Source: an uncultured Acetatifactor sp. (lineage in GTDB: Bacteria; Bacillota; Clostridia; Lachnospirales; Lachnospiraceae). Taken from it: a DNA stretch of 64,000 bases. The position numbers were made by a program, and so were the translations under genes. The notes beneath the pieces were generated by a model that was not told the origin of the DNA, did no database searches, and was given only the letters and a program-made list of their open reading frames with translations. Position 1 is the first letter of the stretch. Every line of letters begins with the position of its first letter. Where the stretch lies: contig CATKYJ010000019.1 in NCBI GenBank assembly GCA_949840885.1, positions 1-64,000 on the forward strand. The letters run 5' to 3'. Below are positions 2,266-58,595 of this stretch, piece by piece.

Positions 2266-2321
2266 TACATTCAAATTCATACATTCAAGTTCATACATTC
2301 AAATTCATACATTTAAATCTT
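2266..2321. repeat. Four tandem copies of a 14-bp unit (tacattcaaattca)
   Basis: TACATTCAAATTCA / TACATTCAAGTTCA / TACATTCAAATTCA / TACATTTAAATCTT read directly. Confidence 0.9.
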
Positions 2322-16610: not shown

Positions 16611-17978
16611 TTACATGCAGCTCTTTTCCCTTACATGCAGCATTCCTACAGGATAGAAACCGTCTTCGCTTCTGCCCTCAAGGGGCAGGCGGATGTGTTC
16701 CTTGCCGTATCCGCAGACTGCAAACTCCACCGGATACGCTTTTGGTTCCAGCCCTTCCGGCACCTTTACGGGCGTGCGGTATGTCCTGGGCTGGTCTTCG
16801 GACAGTTCCCCGGGGACAAACCCCCTCTCCTCTGTAACCTGTCCCGCTATGCGGATTTTTAAGGATCCCTCCGAGCAGAATCTCCCGGCTCCCCGGTTGA
16901 CCCAGCTGTGGACAATGGTGATCCAGCCCTCGCCGCCGGCCTCCGGGATCTCCACTGCAAAGGGAAGCAGCCTGTATCCCATTCTTTTGAGCCCGTGTTC
17001 GATCAGATCCGGTCTCTGCTCATAAAACTGCACACTGTCCCACATCAGCATCATATAATTGGGGTGCAGAAGCAGCGCCTCTTCCACTGTGTCCTCCACA
17101 AAGTATCCCCTGCTGCCCTCCGGCGAGTTTTTGATCAGATAGCCGTTAAAGAACTCCGCGATCATGGGAAGCTTTTTCCCTGACTCATAGAAATCCCGCA
17201 TCAGCTTCGCGTCCCAGATTTTCACCGCACCGCCTATTCCGTCCCTGCGCAGGGATATTCCAGGCTTTTTCAGCGCATAGTCAAAGCCAGACCAGTAGAG
17301 ATACTCCTCGTAGCTCTCAGGCGCATGCAGCGGCGGGTTGCGGTCTTTCATCCACTCATAGGAGCAGGAAAGGATCAGGGTCTTTTTTCCGGAAAAAGCG
17401 CATTCCCAGGCATCGATCAGGCTGCGCAGCGCAGCCGCATGCTGGGCGTATGTGGGGTGCTGATAGCCGCTGTGCCACTCCCCCCAGGCTCCGTATCCCC
17501 TTAAATCCACTGTCTCCAGCGCCGGCTCATCCCCGTAGCGGTCCGCCAGGGCGCATAGAAATCTGCGGAGCGCTTTCTGGTAATCCGGGTTCAGGTAATC
17601 CGGATACCTGGTGCTGTAACCATCCTCATGCACTGCCTGGTAAGCCACGCCGTATTTTTCATACAGCCAGTCCGGCGCCCCCTGTCCCTGCCCGTCATAG
17701 AGCATGGGATCCGTGGAAATGCGGAACTGCAGCTTCTTTCCGCGGCTCTTCCATTTCTCTATGGAAGCGTCCAGATCCTCGAAAGAAAATTCCTTTTCCT
17801 CTCTCTGCAGATGGGCCCACCAGGACAGCAGGGCCACATTGTCCAGATTTTCATAATGGTCCGGCTCGTTGGCATCCTTTTTCCCTTTCCGGATGTCATG
17901 ATGGATGACCCATCCCATACCCGGATTGGAAAAGCATTGCCCATTGTCTTCATGATAATATTTTGCCAATTTTTTCAC
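16611..17978 (-). CDS. DUF4832-like / glycoside-hydrolase-like protein (GTG or TTG start)
   Basis: 'CFSNPGMGWVIHHD' N-terminus, 'VDLRGYGAWGEWHSGY' TIM-barrel-like motif, beta-sandwich-like C-terminus; inside the sugar operon. Confidence 0.6.
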   Translation of the reverse strand: MKKLAKYYHEDNGQCFSNPGMGWVIHHDIRKGKKDANEPDHYENLDNVALLSWWAHLQREEKEFSFEDLDASIEKWKSRGKKLQFRISTDPMLYDGQGQGAPDWLYEKYGVAYQAVHEDGYSTRYPDYLNPDYQKALRRFLCALADRYGDEPALETVDLRGYGAWGEWHSGYQHPTYAQHAAALRSLIDAWECAFSGKKTLILSCSYEWMKDRNPPLHAPESYEEYLYWSGFDYALKKPGISLRRDGIGGAVKIWDAKLMRDFYESGKKLPMIAEFFNGYLIKNSPEGSRGYFVEDTVEEALLLHPNYMMLMWDSVQFYEQRPDLIEHGLKRMGYRLLPFAVEIPEAGGEGWITIVHSWVNRGAGRFCSEGSLKIRIAGQVTEERGFVPGELSEDQPRTYRTPVKVPEGLEPKAYPVEFAVCGYGKEHIRLPLEGRSEDGFYPVGMLHVREKSCM

Positions 17979-17982
17979 CTCC

Positions 17983-18268
17983 TATTAAAATCGCTGCGCG
18001 ATGGCTCTAAAGGGTAAAGTCCCTTCGGCGCACTTCCTTGAGAGGAAATTTCATTCGACAGGGCTCTCATGATATTTCCTCTCCTGCGCTTTCGCGACTT
18101 TACTATTAAAATCGCTGCGCGATGGCTCTGAAGAGTAAAGTCTCTTCGGCGCACTTCCTTGAGAGGAAATTTCATTCGACAGGGCTCTCATGATATTTCC
18201 TCTCCTGCGCCTTCGCGACTTTACTATTAATATCGCTGCGCCATGGCTCTAAAGGGTAAAGTCCCTTC
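17983..18268 (-). repeat. Tandem 121-bp repeat, family A: two full copies (17983-18103, 18104-18224) plus a 44-bp partial copy (18225-18268)
   Basis: Copies read directly with few mismatches; nested inverted repeats GTAAAGTC/GACTTTAC and GAGAGGAAAT/ATTTCCTCTC in each full copy. Confidence 0.95.
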
Positions 18269-19192
18269 CCGGGCTTCCACCTCCCTGCGAGACGGCAGTG
18301 ACTCCTGCGCCCCGGCGCGGGTAACGGCGATGCTCGAAGCGCAGATCGCAAATTCCACTGCCTCCTGCTCTGTTCTCCCTTCGGCCAATGCCACGGCTAA
18401 TGCCGCGTTAAAGCAGTCTCCCGCCGCAGTAGTGTCCACGGCCCGCACCTGTTTTGCCGGGAACCAGGCAGCATGCCCTTTCCGAAAGACACCACAGCCT
18501 TTTTCTCCCAGCGTCACGATCACGGTTCCCACCCCTTTCTCCAGGAGCCTGCGCGCTCCTTCCTGTATGGCCTGTCCGTCCCAGGTGCCGCCCGAAAATT
18601 CTCCCTCCATGCCACACAGCTTCATCAGTTCCGTTTCGTTGGGCGTCAGATAGTCCAGTCCCCGGTAAATCTCATCCGGAATATGCTCCGGCGCGGGAGC
18701 AGGGTTTAAAATCACTTTTCCGTGGACAGCCCTGGCATCCAGAATCGCCCTGTACAGCGCCTTTTGAGGAATTTCCATCTGAACCAAGACAATACCGGCG
18801 GATCGGATGACTTCCCTTTTGCTTTTTATGTAATCCTCATCGCAGGAAAGGTTCGCCCCCTGGCTGACCACAATACAGTTGCCTCCGTTTTCCTCCACAC
18901 AGATAAAAGCGCTCCCCGTGGAGATGGTCCTGTCGGTTTTGATATCGGAAACATCCACTCCCGCCTCTCTTAGCGCCTGGGTATGCTTCCTCCCGAAGTC
19001 ATCATCGCCCACACAGCCCAGCATCCTGACCTTTCCTCCCAGCCGTGCGGCTGCCATTGCCTGATTCGCCCCTTTGCCTCCAAGACCAAAGGAAAGATTC
19101 CTCGCAAGGATGGTCTCTCCGGTCTTCGGCAGTTCTTTCACCCTGATTGTCATATCTACGTTCATGCTTCCGATCACAAGGATATCACCCAT
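18227..19192 (-). CDS. rbsK: Ribokinase (PfkB family)
   Basis: 'VIGSMNVDMTIRV', 'GGKGANQAMAAARLG', 'ILNPAPA', 'DTTAAGDCFNAALAVAL'; start at MGDILVIG with upstream GGGAG; ORF track start 19258 over-extended. Confidence 0.92.
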   Translation of the reverse strand: MGDILVIGSMNVDMTIRVKELPKTGETILARNLSFGLGGKGANQAMAAARLGGKVRMLGCVGDDDFGRKHTQALREAGVDVSDIKTDRTISTGSAFICVEENGGNCIVVSQGANLSCDEDYIKSKREVIRSAGIVLVQMEIPQKALYRAILDARAVHGKVILNPAPAPEHIPDEIYRGLDYLTPNETELMKLCGMEGEFSGGTWDGQAIQEGARRLLEKGVGTVIVTLGEKGCGVFRKGHAAWFPAKQVRAVDTTAAGDCFNAALAVALAEGRTEQEAVEFAICASSIAVTRAGAQESLPSRREVEAREGTLPFRAMAQRY

Positions 19193-19322
19193 TGCATTAC
19201 TCCCTTTCGCGCCGGGGCGGCCGCCGGCGGCTTGCCATTGTTCCGTAAGCCGAAACAAGAAACGGAAACGGCTTTCGTCACAATGTTATGATAAATTAGT
19301 TTCGTAAAATATTTTACTTACT

Positions 19323-19451: not shown

Positions 19452-21356
19452 ATGACCATCAACGAAATCGCCCGACTGGCAGACGTGTCTATTTCCACTG
19501 TGTCCAAAATCATGAACCACAAAGATCAGAACATCACTGCCGGGACCCGGGAAAAAGTATTGCAGATTGCAAAAGAATACAACTATGTCCCCTATGCTTC
19601 TGCCCGCAGCGCGTCTGTTTCCAAGACCTTTCTGCTGGGTGTGCTCATACCGGACTTCTCCCAATGCGGGAGGCTGCTGGAAGGAATTCTGGACAGGGCC
19701 GCGAGACAGGGCTACCGCGTCATACCTTGCAGCAGCCAGGGCGATGCGGAAACCGAACTCAAGCATATCTCCGCCCTGTGCAGGGCAAAGGTGGACGGCG
19801 TGATCTGGGAGCCCGTGTGCACGGAAAGTCTTTCCCGACAAAGGTATTTTGAGGAAGAAAGCATCTGTGTCACCAGGCTTTGTGCAGGGACAAAGGACTG
19901 CTTTTTCATGGACTACAATACTATAGTCTTTCGTGGCGCAGAAGAACTCATCCGGCTAAAGCACACGCAGTTTTCTCTGTTGGCAAATTCTCTAAATCCT
20001 GCCGATGCCCTGGCCGGCTTCCGCTCCGCCCTCTTCAGCCACCAGATCCCCTTTGATCCCGACCGGATCCTTGGGCAGGATTCCCGGGACTGGATCCCAA
20101 AAATAAAGTCCCTGGGGCTCACAGGCGCCATCTGCACGGATTATCGTGACGCCCTGGAGCTGCTGGCACTGTTAAAGCAGTATCAGTATCAGGTGCCCGG
20201 CGATTTTTCCGTCCTGGCGGTCACGGACGACAGGACGGCTCCGGTGCTGGCCGGATGCGTATCCACGCTTGCAGTCCCCTTTTATTCGTTTGGGATGCAT
20301 CTGTGCGCCCATCTGTTGGGCCAGTGCGAACAGCACATCGCGCAGTATGTCCCTTTCGTCCCCGACTGCAGTCCGGACTCTTCCCTGACGCTGGACGTAC
20401 CGCCCAGCGTAAAGCTTCCCCATATCATTGTAGTTGGCAGCCTCAACATTGACACCACTCTGAACATCGGACGGCTCCCAAAGCCTGGGGAGACCATTAC
20501 CGCCCGCCAGACCATCACCCCCGGCGGAAAGGGCACCAATCAGGCCGTAGGCGTGGCCAAACTCAACCACAAGGTCACTCTGCTGGGAAATGTGGGAAAC
20601 GATCTGGAAACAGGACTGATCTATTCCTGCTTAAAAGAATACGGCATCGACATCACGGGCATCCAGAAAGATAAGTCCGCCGATACCGGAAGAGCCTACA
20701 TTCAGGTACAGGACAGCGGGGAGTCCACAATCACGCTGCTCACCGGGGCAAACGGCACGCTGACGGCCAGAACCGTGGAGGAGAACAGCCATCTGTTCTC
20801 CCATTGCGCCTACTGTCTGCTGCAGACCGAAGTAGCGGTAGAAGCCATTGAGGCGGCGGCTGCCATTGCCCACCGCCATGGCGTAAAGACGATCCTGAAG
20901 CCCTCCTCCGTCTCCCGCTTAAGCGATGGGCTGCTGCGGAACACGGACATCTTCCTGCCTAACAGGGCGGAGATGGCAATCATATGCAATGAGGCTCCGG
21001 CCTTTTCTTCAGAGGCATTGAACCGACAGGCAGACCGCATCCTGGAAAAAGGCGCCGGCGCCGTCATCATCACGCTGGGAGAGGACGGATGCTTTTTAAA
21101 GGATGCGGCTCACTCCATGCTCTTTCCGGCAGCGGATTTCGCCCCCATGGACAAAACCGGCGGCAGCGATGCCTTTATCAGCGCCCTGGCCTCCTATCTT
21201 CTGTACGGCTATGGTCTCCATGCCGCGATCCGCATTGCCCACTGCGCCGCCGGCTTTTGCATCTCCAGGCAGGGCATTGTCCCCGCTCTGATCGATCAGA
21301 CATCGCTGGAGAAGTATATCCACAATACCTGCCCGGAACTGCTGGAAAAAAAGTAA
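19452..21356 (+). CDS. LacI-family transcriptional regulator fused to a PfkB/ribokinase-like domain
   Basis: N-terminal HTH 'MTINEIARLADVSISTVSKIMNHKDQNITAGTREKVLQIAKEYNYVPYASARS'; from about residue 327 'PHIIVVGSLNIDTTLNIGRLPKPGETITARQTITPGGKGTNQAVGVAKL... DKTGGSDAFISAL'. Confidence 0.92.
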   Translation: MTINEIARLADVSISTVSKIMNHKDQNITAGTREKVLQIAKEYNYVPYASARSASVSKTFLLGVLIPDFSQCGRLLEGILDRAARQGYRVIPCSSQGDAETELKHISALCRAKVDGVIWEPVCTESLSRQRYFEEESICVTRLCAGTKDCFFMDYNTIVFRGAEELIRLKHTQFSLLANSLNPADALAGFRSALFSHQIPFDPDRILGQDSRDWIPKIKSLGLTGAICTDYRDALELLALLKQYQYQVPGDFSVLAVTDDRTAPVLAGCVSTLAVPFYSFGMHLCAHLLGQCEQHIAQYVPFVPDCSPDSSLTLDVPPSVKLPHIIVVGSLNIDTTLNIGRLPKPGETITARQTITPGGKGTNQAVGVAKLNHKVTLLGNVGNDLETGLIYSCLKEYGIDITGIQKDKSADTGRAYIQVQDSGESTITLLTGANGTLTARTVEENSHLFSHCAYCLLQTEVAVEAIEAAAAIAHRHGVKTILKPSSVSRLSDGLLRNTDIFLPNRAEMAIICNEAPAFSSEALNRQADRILEKGAGAVIITLGEDGCFLKDAAHSMLFPAADFAPMDKTGGSDAFISALASYLLYGYGLHAAIRIAHCAAGFCISRQGIVPALIDQTSLEKYIHNTCPELLEKK

Positions 21357-27252: not shown

Positions 27253-27312
27253 TATTTTAAGTCGCTGCGCGACAGCACTAAAGGGTGTGGTTCCTTCGGC
27301 GCGCACACCTGT
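27253..27312 (-). repeat. Dispersed repeat family A, diverged half-copy immediately upstream of the mfd RBS
   Basis: tattttaagtcgctgcgcgacagcactaaagggtgtggttccttcggcgcgcac versus 17983 tattaaaatcgctgcgcgatggctctaaagggtaaagtcccttcggcgcac. Confidence 0.8.
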
Positions 27313-27433
27313 CCAGCTAAACATTGATAATCAAATACCCCGCTGCAAGCAATGGGGTATCAATCTTGCAGCGCTGCAGAGCAGAAAGTGTCCTTCGGAC
27401 ACTTTGGTATTTGACCCTCGCGGCATTCGTCAA

Positions 27434-27483
27434 ATGTGCATGCAAGCATGCCCACTTGACTCATTGCTCGCGGGAATAAATGG
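27434..27483. repeat. Dispersed palindromic repeat, family C copy 1
   Basis: atgtgcatgcaagcatgcccacttgactcattgctcgcgggaataaatg; matches 42036-42084. Confidence 0.8.
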
Positions 27484-27562
27484 CTTGACATCTCTTAGCT
27501 GGACTGTTATCTTCTTTCCGTCATCCGCTGTCTGTCCCACAGGGCCTGGTCTGCCCAGGGCC

Positions 27563-57938: not shown

Positions 57939-58595
57939 CTATAAATATTTACGCGCTTCCGCCTCGTCCAGCTGGTACTGGGTGCACAGTTTCTGAATGA
58001 TTTCCTGGTCGGGCACATTGAAGCTTCGCAGTATATCTATTGTTCCTTTATACATATTGTCAATCGTTTTCCGCTGTTGGCTGATCTCCTGCCTCTGGGC
58101 ATTGAGCTCCTCCCTCTGGGCGTCGAGTTCCTCCCTCTGGGCGTCGAGCATCTCCTGCTGCTCATCAATCATGTACTGCACCGTATTCCTGTCAAGCTCA
58201 TACAATTCCTTTGAGAACATCTCCATCACCCTTTCCGTATTCCGGCAGAGTTCATATCCCTCCTCGTATATCGGACGAAATTCCGGGTACTTCTCCACCA
58301 GTTCCATAATTTTTTCCGGTTCGTCACATGCAAGCAGCGTCAGCCATGCCTCCCGCCTCCCTGTGATATCTCTATTGTGCTGATTTTTTACGAAGATGTC
58401 AAGCGGTATGAGCACATATTTCTGCAGAAGTTCCAGTTTTAAGCCCGTATCTGACTTCTGCTCAAAGAAATGGCGGTACGTTTCCGGGTATTCATGGAAC
58501 TCTTTCGGGCTCTTCTCGAACAGCACTATCTTGTATACATTCTTAATGTCCCGGTAGCTGAACTTCTTCCCTGCCTCTCCGGCAAGGTTTGTCAA
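57939..58595 (-). pseudogene. Rpn/PD-(D/E)XK transposase-like protein, N-terminally truncated
   Basis: C-terminal part of the family ('FSYRDIKNVYKIVLFEKSPKEFHEYPETYRHFFEQKSDTGLKLELLQKYVLIPLDIF... MEMFSKELYELDRNTVQYMIDE') without the N-terminal nuclease domain; ends in coiled-coil repeats. Confidence 0.7.

What the first reader, a model, noticed from the sequence alone, without database searches (positions are those of the whole stretch)
17983..18268. 121-bp tandem repeat with nested palindromes, its own RBS-ATG, and a partial copy forming the C-terminus of ribokinase
Seen: two full copies with 121-bp period and a 44-bp partial third copy. Read on the minus strand each contains GTAAAGTC...GACTTTAC enclosing GAGAGGAAAT...ATTTCCTCTC, and AGGAGAGG-N7-ATG opening an ORF MRALSNEISSQGSAPKGLYPLEPSRSDFN. 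The partial copy encodes the last ~13 codons and stop of rbsK (EGTLPFRAMAQRY*), and the innermost copy ends at the RBS of the next gene. The period is not a multiple of 3, so successive copies are read in different frames. Inference: a mobile or recombining structured element that inserts at gene junctions, supplying stop codons, RNA structure and possibly a short peptide.
Basis: partly seen in the sequence, partly recalled or inferred. Interest (0 to 1): 0.74.

Follow-up and report, generated by a model that had tools for sequence, protein, structure and literature searches.

The report
Hairpin repeats inserted before ribosome-binding sites
A gut-bacterial lineage carries a scattered family of short DNA repeats that fold into hairpins and lie almost always directly in front of the ribosome-binding site of a gene, sometimes giving the gene before it a new ending; the repeat in this window is one tandem array of that family.

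Summary
A 121-bp unit occurs 2.4 times at window 17983-18268 (minus strand), between a ribokinase gene and a GH42-like gene. It is not unique: the host genome has about 20 loci, and a covariance model finds the family in 25 of 121 sampled species of the genus but in only 1-2 other genera of 249 tested. Each unit is a long hairpin plus a short 3' hairpin; 17 of 32 base pairs show compensatory changes. The striking feature is placement: of 58 loci picked by the tail sequence alone, 43 are followed at once by a Shine-Dalgarno (SD) sequence and start codon (1.6% at random positions), and in the other 15 further sequence, mostly repeat modules, leads to an SD within 237 nt. Sister-species comparisons show empty and filled sites with an SD present in both, loss of 5' parts by deletion, and tandem copy-number change. 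The ribokinase C-terminus is repeat-derived and differs in the sister species. The proposed peptide shows no coding constraint. Best reading: a BOX/ERIC-like small interspersed repeat with a new, strict, SD-adjacent placement. How it moves and what it does are not known; no Rfam family matched.

The parts
17983..18103 (-). Repeat unit 1 (SD-proximal), 121 bp: long hairpin (18014-18103) plus tail CCTTTAGAGCCATCGCGCAGCGATTTTAATA
   Evidence: covariance-model hit
18104..18224 (-). Repeat unit 2, 121 bp, 97% identical to unit 1
18225..18268 (-). 5'-truncated third unit (end of long hairpin plus tail); read through by the ribokinase ORF as EGTLPFRAMAQRY*
18014..18103 (-). Module M2: hairpin GTAAAGTC...GACTTTAC enclosing GAGAGGAAAT...ATTTCCTCTC
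   Evidence: fold; covariation across 41 copies
17990..18002 (-). Module M3: short tail hairpin ATCGC-GCA-GCGAT
   Evidence: G-C/A-U covariation at the outer pair
17978..17982 (-). SD (GGAGG) of the downstream gene, abutting the 3' end of unit 1; likely start TTG at 17969
   Evidence: direct reading
16611..17978 (-). Downstream gene: GH42-like (beta-galactosidase family) protein; mostly missing in the sister species
18227..19258 (-). Upstream gene: ribokinase (PfkB family); C-terminal codons and stop lie in the repeat
17975..18070 (-). Small ORF MRALSNEISSQGSAPKGLYPLEPSRSDFNRR in unit 1; no evidence of coding selection
27255..27505 (-). Second family member in the window: about 250-bp M1-(short M2)-M3 element before the SD of an mfd-like gene; 97% identical over 263 bp to a copy before gltD on contig C14

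Best explanation
The array is one member of a lineage-specific family of small (about 40-260 bp), non-coding, hairpin-forming interspersed repeats. SHOWN: copies are dispersed, in gene orientation, with the 3' end fixed directly before the AGGAGG of a gene and a variable 5' end; the SD is present in repeat-free orthologous loci; hairpins are kept by compensatory changes; tandem copy number and 5' extent differ between sister species; upstream genes (rbsK and two others) take their stop codon from the repeat. INFERRED: the element spreads as a non-autonomous mobile repeat that homes to SD motifs (or to CCTCC on the other strand), then grows by tandem duplication and shrinks by deletion. It is carried in the mRNA between genes, where its self-contained hairpins leave the SD usable, so insertion in front of a gene is tolerated. 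Any effect on mRNA processing, stability or expression of the downstream gene would be a secondary, locus-specific consequence.
For: Dispersal: 19 places in the host genome at E<0.001, 58 stretches in named Lachnospiraceae genomes, 25/121 species of the genus, 1 strong and 1 weak other genus of 249. Placement: 43/58 tail-selected loci followed at once by SD plus start, against 633/40,000 random positions; the other 15 reach one within 237 nt; 19/28 model- or DNA-selected loci, including another genus. Empty/filled sites with an SD in both: pheS-pheT, an mfd-like gene, the locus of L021, clpP; 5' loss by deletion at gltD. Tandem variation between sisters; tandem spacings 114-130 and 173-175 bp elsewhere. 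Structure: 98.3% of cells paired, 17/32 pairs with two-sided changes, 0/500 shuffles. Host-gene endings taken from the repeat: rbsK, L018 and L021 loci.
Against: No mobilising enzyme found; the Y1 (IS200/IS605) transposase family is missing from 3 of 6 element-carrying genomes. No target-site duplication seen. Spread by recombination between repeats and SD-like ends, without transposition, is not excluded. SD accessibility next to the element is only slightly above shuffled controls (0.49 vs 0.42, p=0.03). Sense-strand G-U excess (55 vs 8) is matched by the same C/T skew in unpaired columns (55 vs 7), so it does not prove RNA-level selection.
Confidence: 0.62

Rival explanations
1. The repeat is a domesticated cis-regulatory RNA: its hairpins act as a 5' stabiliser or processing site (RNase III or RNase Y) or as an attenuator that sets expression of the gene behind it, and selection for this explains position and structure.
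For: Fixed place before the SD, gene orientation, strong compensatory changes.
Against: Downstream genes share no function (tRNA synthetases, ABC transporters, gltD, clpP, cobalamin genes, ribokinase neighbours). Orthologous genes in relatives do without it. Copies are truncated or lost between close relatives. Distribution is patchy within the genus.
Confidence: 0.2
2. The repeat encodes a 28-codon leader peptide whose stop codon next to the SD couples translation to the downstream gene.
For: ATG in 39/41 copies; 29/41 have the full open frame ending just before the SD.
Against: No excess of synonymous changes (15 vs 19.5 expected), equal diversity at the three codon positions, four stop-creating substitutions, 9/41 frameshifts. 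The ATG is held by base pairing (CAT/ATG) in the stem, and its SD is paired.
Confidence: 0.06
3. It is a palindrome-ended derivative of an IS200/IS605 (Y1) element: the bottom strand reads CCTCC|TATTTAAA-GTCGCTGCGCGAC, that is, a target motif, a short spacer and a subterminal hairpin.
For: Strict orientation, no target-site duplication, hairpin near the fixed end, target-like CCTCC.
Against: Y1 transposases are missing in 3 of 6 genomes rich in the element, and the host's single copy has no matching ends. The other end is not fixed, which Y1 chemistry requires.
Confidence: 0.07
4. A local tandem duplication with no wider meaning.
For: Copies here are 97% identical and in tandem.
Against: Dispersed copies at many unrelated loci in many species.
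Confidence: 0.01

Closest known systems
BOX elements of Streptococcus pneumoniae (PMC3049150)
   Same: Modular hairpin repeats, tandem copy-number variation, lineage-restricted, sometimes in 5' UTRs, can contain ORFs of doubtful meaning
   Different: No SD-adjacent placement is described: BOX is over-represented between convergent genes, whereas this family lies directly before SDs. Sequences were not aligned here.
ERIC/RU-1 intergenic repeat units of enterobacteria (PMC2759123)
   Same: About 127-bp imperfect palindromes between genes; RU-1 fusion replaces a gene's stop codon and lengthens its C-terminus, as with rbsK here
   Different: Different taxon; no SD-fixed 3' end described in the passages read
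TAACTGA direct repeats of Beggiatoaceae (PMC4679880)
   Same: Many copies, same orientation, within a few nt of start codons, no common gene function downstream
   Different: 7-bp direct repeats that overlap or replace the SD; here about 120-bp hairpins lie 5' of an intact SD
REP/BIME elements and RAYT (IS200-like) systems
   Same: Short palindromes, dispersed in orientation-dependent arrays (own knowledge)
   Different: REP sit mostly 3' of genes with a GTAG-type foot (own knowledge); here the site is the 5' side of genes and a Y1 enzyme is missing from several carriers

Membership tests
Small interspersed repeat / MITE-like element (general kind) | Short, non-coding, multicopy, dispersed at unrelated loci | tested here: met
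Small interspersed repeat / MITE-like element (general kind) | Presence/absence at orthologous sites | tested here: met
MITE (strict sense) | Terminal inverted repeats at both ends and a target-site duplication | tested here: inconclusive
   The M2 arms form an inverted repeat, but the tail lies outside it, the 5' end is variable, and no duplication is visible in the sister-species comparisons
MITE (strict sense) | Ends shared with an autonomous transposon | not tested
   Only the Y1 family was examined
BOX element | boxA-boxB-boxC sequence modules | not tested
   BOX sequences were not aligned; only distribution and modular form were compared from the paper
IS200/IS605-derived palindromic element (REP, PATE) | Y1 transposase in carriers with matching ends | tested here: not met
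   Missing in 3 of 6 carriers; the host copy has no matching ends
Known structured RNA (Rfam 15) | Match to any of 4227 families | tested here: not met
   (only weak chance matches and a tRNA)
Leader peptide / upstream ORF | Coding constraint on the frame | tested here: not met

The most novel reading that the evidence does not exclude
A mobile, hairpin-forming element that homes specifically to Shine-Dalgarno sequences, using the SD (or its complement CCTCC) as insertion target and entering the chromosome through an RNA or single-strand intermediate with a fixed 3' end and variable 5' end. This would be an insertion specificity for translation-initiation sites not described in what was read here.
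Probability: 0.3. Interest if true: 0.82.

Novelty: new variant of a known kind. Interest (0 to 1): 0.56.

Why it matters
Small interspersed repeats such as BOX collect where they do least harm, between convergent genes. A family that sits almost only at the 5' edge of ribosome-binding sites, mostly between genes in the same direction, implies either a targeting mechanism that recognises SD sequences or strong selection for hairpins just before the SD. Both are testable. The family also shows a simple route by which genes gain new C-termini and stop codons, and it marks a hypervariable set of leaders in a poorly studied gut lineage. It probably also breaks draft assemblies.

Tried and rejected
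Peptide hypothesis: rejected on codon statistics and frameshifts. Sense-strand wobble excess as proof of an RNA role: rejected after the unpaired-column control gave the same C/T skew. IS200/IS605 origin: Y1 transposase search did not support it. True 5' truncation as in target-primed reverse transcription: weakened because at gltD the short form in the sister species looks like a deletion of the long one. Phage or plasmid origin: no match in the phage or plasmid collections; two scans of viral contigs failed with a machine error, so that collection is untested. coaD comparison with the genus shows compact rsmD-coaD junctions without the element, but those genomes are too distant to place the insertion point.

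Full report
OBSERVATION. The window holds two 121-bp units and a 44-bp partial third at 17983-18268, read on the minus strand, the direction of the genes. Each unit is a long hairpin (module M2) plus a tail with a short hairpin (M3), GAGCCATCGCGCAGCGATTTTAATA. One unit folds at -45.9 kcal/mol, z = -5.5. The last unit ends exactly at GGAGG (17982-17978) of the next gene, a GH42-like protein; the partial unit lies under the last codons of a ribokinase.

A DISPERSED FAMILY. The 286-bp array has 19 matches in the host genome at E < 0.001; a looser search and a tail search give about 20 loci. Two contigs (C63 and C85) end in a copy, and C24 starts with a 16-base piece of one. A pattern taken from the tail alone hits 58 stretches in named Lachnospiraceae genomes. 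A covariance model built from 41 copies finds the family in 25 of 121 sampled species of the genus (counts per genome are lower bounds because few candidates were scored) and, in 250 genomes of the family, only in one other genus, with a second weak hit. It is therefore lineage-restricted.

ANATOMY. Full members read M1-M2-M3: M1 = AGTCCAGCTAAGAAATGTCAAG...GCTGGAC; M2 = GGTAAAGTCGCAAAGGCGCACGAGAGGAACTTTCATGAG...CGAATGAAAGTTTCTCTC...GTGYGYCGAAGCGACTTTACC; M3 = CTTTAGTGCCGTCGCGCAGCGACTTTAAAT. Other hairpin modules share the site: M4 (CAGTAATATCCCTC...GAGGGATATTACGGAACTGGAAT) and M6 (GTCTCGGAGC...GAGACGGAACTGGAAT). Modules start with (C)AGT and end in AAT, and are joined head to tail or to AGGAGG. 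Two copies in the host genome, at an mfd-like gene (window 27255-27505) and at gltD, are 97% identical over 263 bp.

PLACEMENT. The 58 tail matches used here come from the loci after removing duplicates. Of these, 43 are followed directly by an SD core and a start codon of an ORF of at least 60 codons; random positions in the same DNA give 633 of 40,000. In the other 15 an SD and start follow within 237 nt; for most of these the DNA in between is further repeat modules, but in L101 its nature was not established. In a second set chosen by the model or by DNA similarity, including a different genus, 19 of 28 satisfy the same rule. The search pattern contained no SD, so this is not by construction in the first set.

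STRUCTURE. In 41 copies 98.3% of paired cells are standard pairs, and 17 of 32 pairs have two-sided changes, against 6.5 in shuffles (0/500 reach it). Some tail bases are fixed because the loci were chosen by them. Sense folds are more stable than antisense in 40 of 41, but unpaired columns show the same C/T skew (55 against 7), so this cannot be read as selection on RNA.

EMPTY AND FILLED SITES. A sister species (handle G061, contigs JAAWOU) is 97% identical around the ribokinase. Compared with it and others: pheS-pheT has the element in the host and none in the sister; the mfd-like gene has it in the host, not in the sister, and another module in G014; the L021 locus has it in the host only, with AAGGAGGAAATYATATG kept in both; clpP has a full copy in the host, a degenerate remnant in the sister and none in two others; at gltD the sister keeps only the tail, directly after the stop codon. 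Tandem copy number differs between the sisters at two loci. So an SD is there without the repeat, the repeat comes to lie directly 5' of it, and its 5' side is lost by deletion.

GENE ENDINGS. The ribokinase ends ...EVEAREGTLPFRAMAQRY* here and ...EVEARERT* in the sister, both inside repeat DNA; a homologue in G014 without the repeat ends ...VENWRDAAEFLEG. At the L018 and L021 loci the upstream stop codon is also inside the repeat in the host but not in the sister. ERIC/RU-1 repeats are a precedent (PMC2759123).

PEPTIDE. ATG is kept in 39 of 41 copies and 29 have the whole frame, but synonymous changes are not enriched (15 against 19.5 expected), the three codon positions vary equally, and 9 copies are frameshifted. 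The ATG lies in the stem (CAT paired with ATG), which explains its conservation.

MECHANISM. Best reading: a non-autonomous mobile or recombining repeat that enters directly before SD sequences in gene orientation, multiplies in tandem, and decays from the 5' side. SDs next to the tail are slightly more accessible than in shuffled controls (0.49 against 0.42, p = 0.03), in keeping with tolerance of the insertion. The enzyme is unknown; Y1 transposases are missing from 3 of 6 carriers. No target duplication was seen. Selective retention of randomly placed copies is less likely, since copies elsewhere in intergenic DNA were almost absent, but it is not excluded.

COMPARISON. BOX repeats are modular, structured and variable in length, but are over-represented between convergent genes (PMC3049150). 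TAACTGA repeats of Beggiatoaceae share the position near start codons but are 7-bp direct repeats in place of the SD (PMC4679880). Rfam holds nothing alike. Literature searches in the open library found no description of this family; subscription papers were not searchable.

VERDICT. A real, unfamiliar family of a known kind, with an unusual and well-supported placement rule; mobility inferred from dispersal and empty sites, mechanism and function open.

Noticed in passing
window 27255-27505 (minus): Second member of the family in the window, M1-(short M2)-M3, with a long insert in M1 made of further palindromes, before an mfd-like gene; near-identical copy before gltD on contig C14.
   Followed up: yes
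L087, L104, L105, L113, L141 and others; A second repeat family (M4, ends ...ATTACGGAACTGGAATAGGAGG) obeys the same SD-adjacent rule and joins to M1-M3 modules.
   Followed up: partly
L018, L023 (element orientation): A short hairpin ACAATAGAAAGC-AG-GCTTTCTATTGT inserted between the tail and the SD at two unrelated loci: another module of the same site.
   Followed up: no
window 16611-17978 and L175: The GH42-like gene downstream is mostly deleted in the sister species, together with most of the repeat array.
   Followed up: partly
alignment A3, unpaired columns: Strong C/T over G/A skew on the sense strand of the repeat (55 vs 7 cells), cause unknown (transcription-linked deamination or single-strand phase?).
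   Followed up: no
window 19452-21356 (plus): Divergent gene encoding a LacI-type regulator fused to a PfkB (ribokinase-like) kinase domain in one protein.
   Followed up: no
window 2266-2318 and 58086-58149: Two unrelated short tandem repeats (14-bp x 3.8, 21-bp x 3.0).
   Followed up: no
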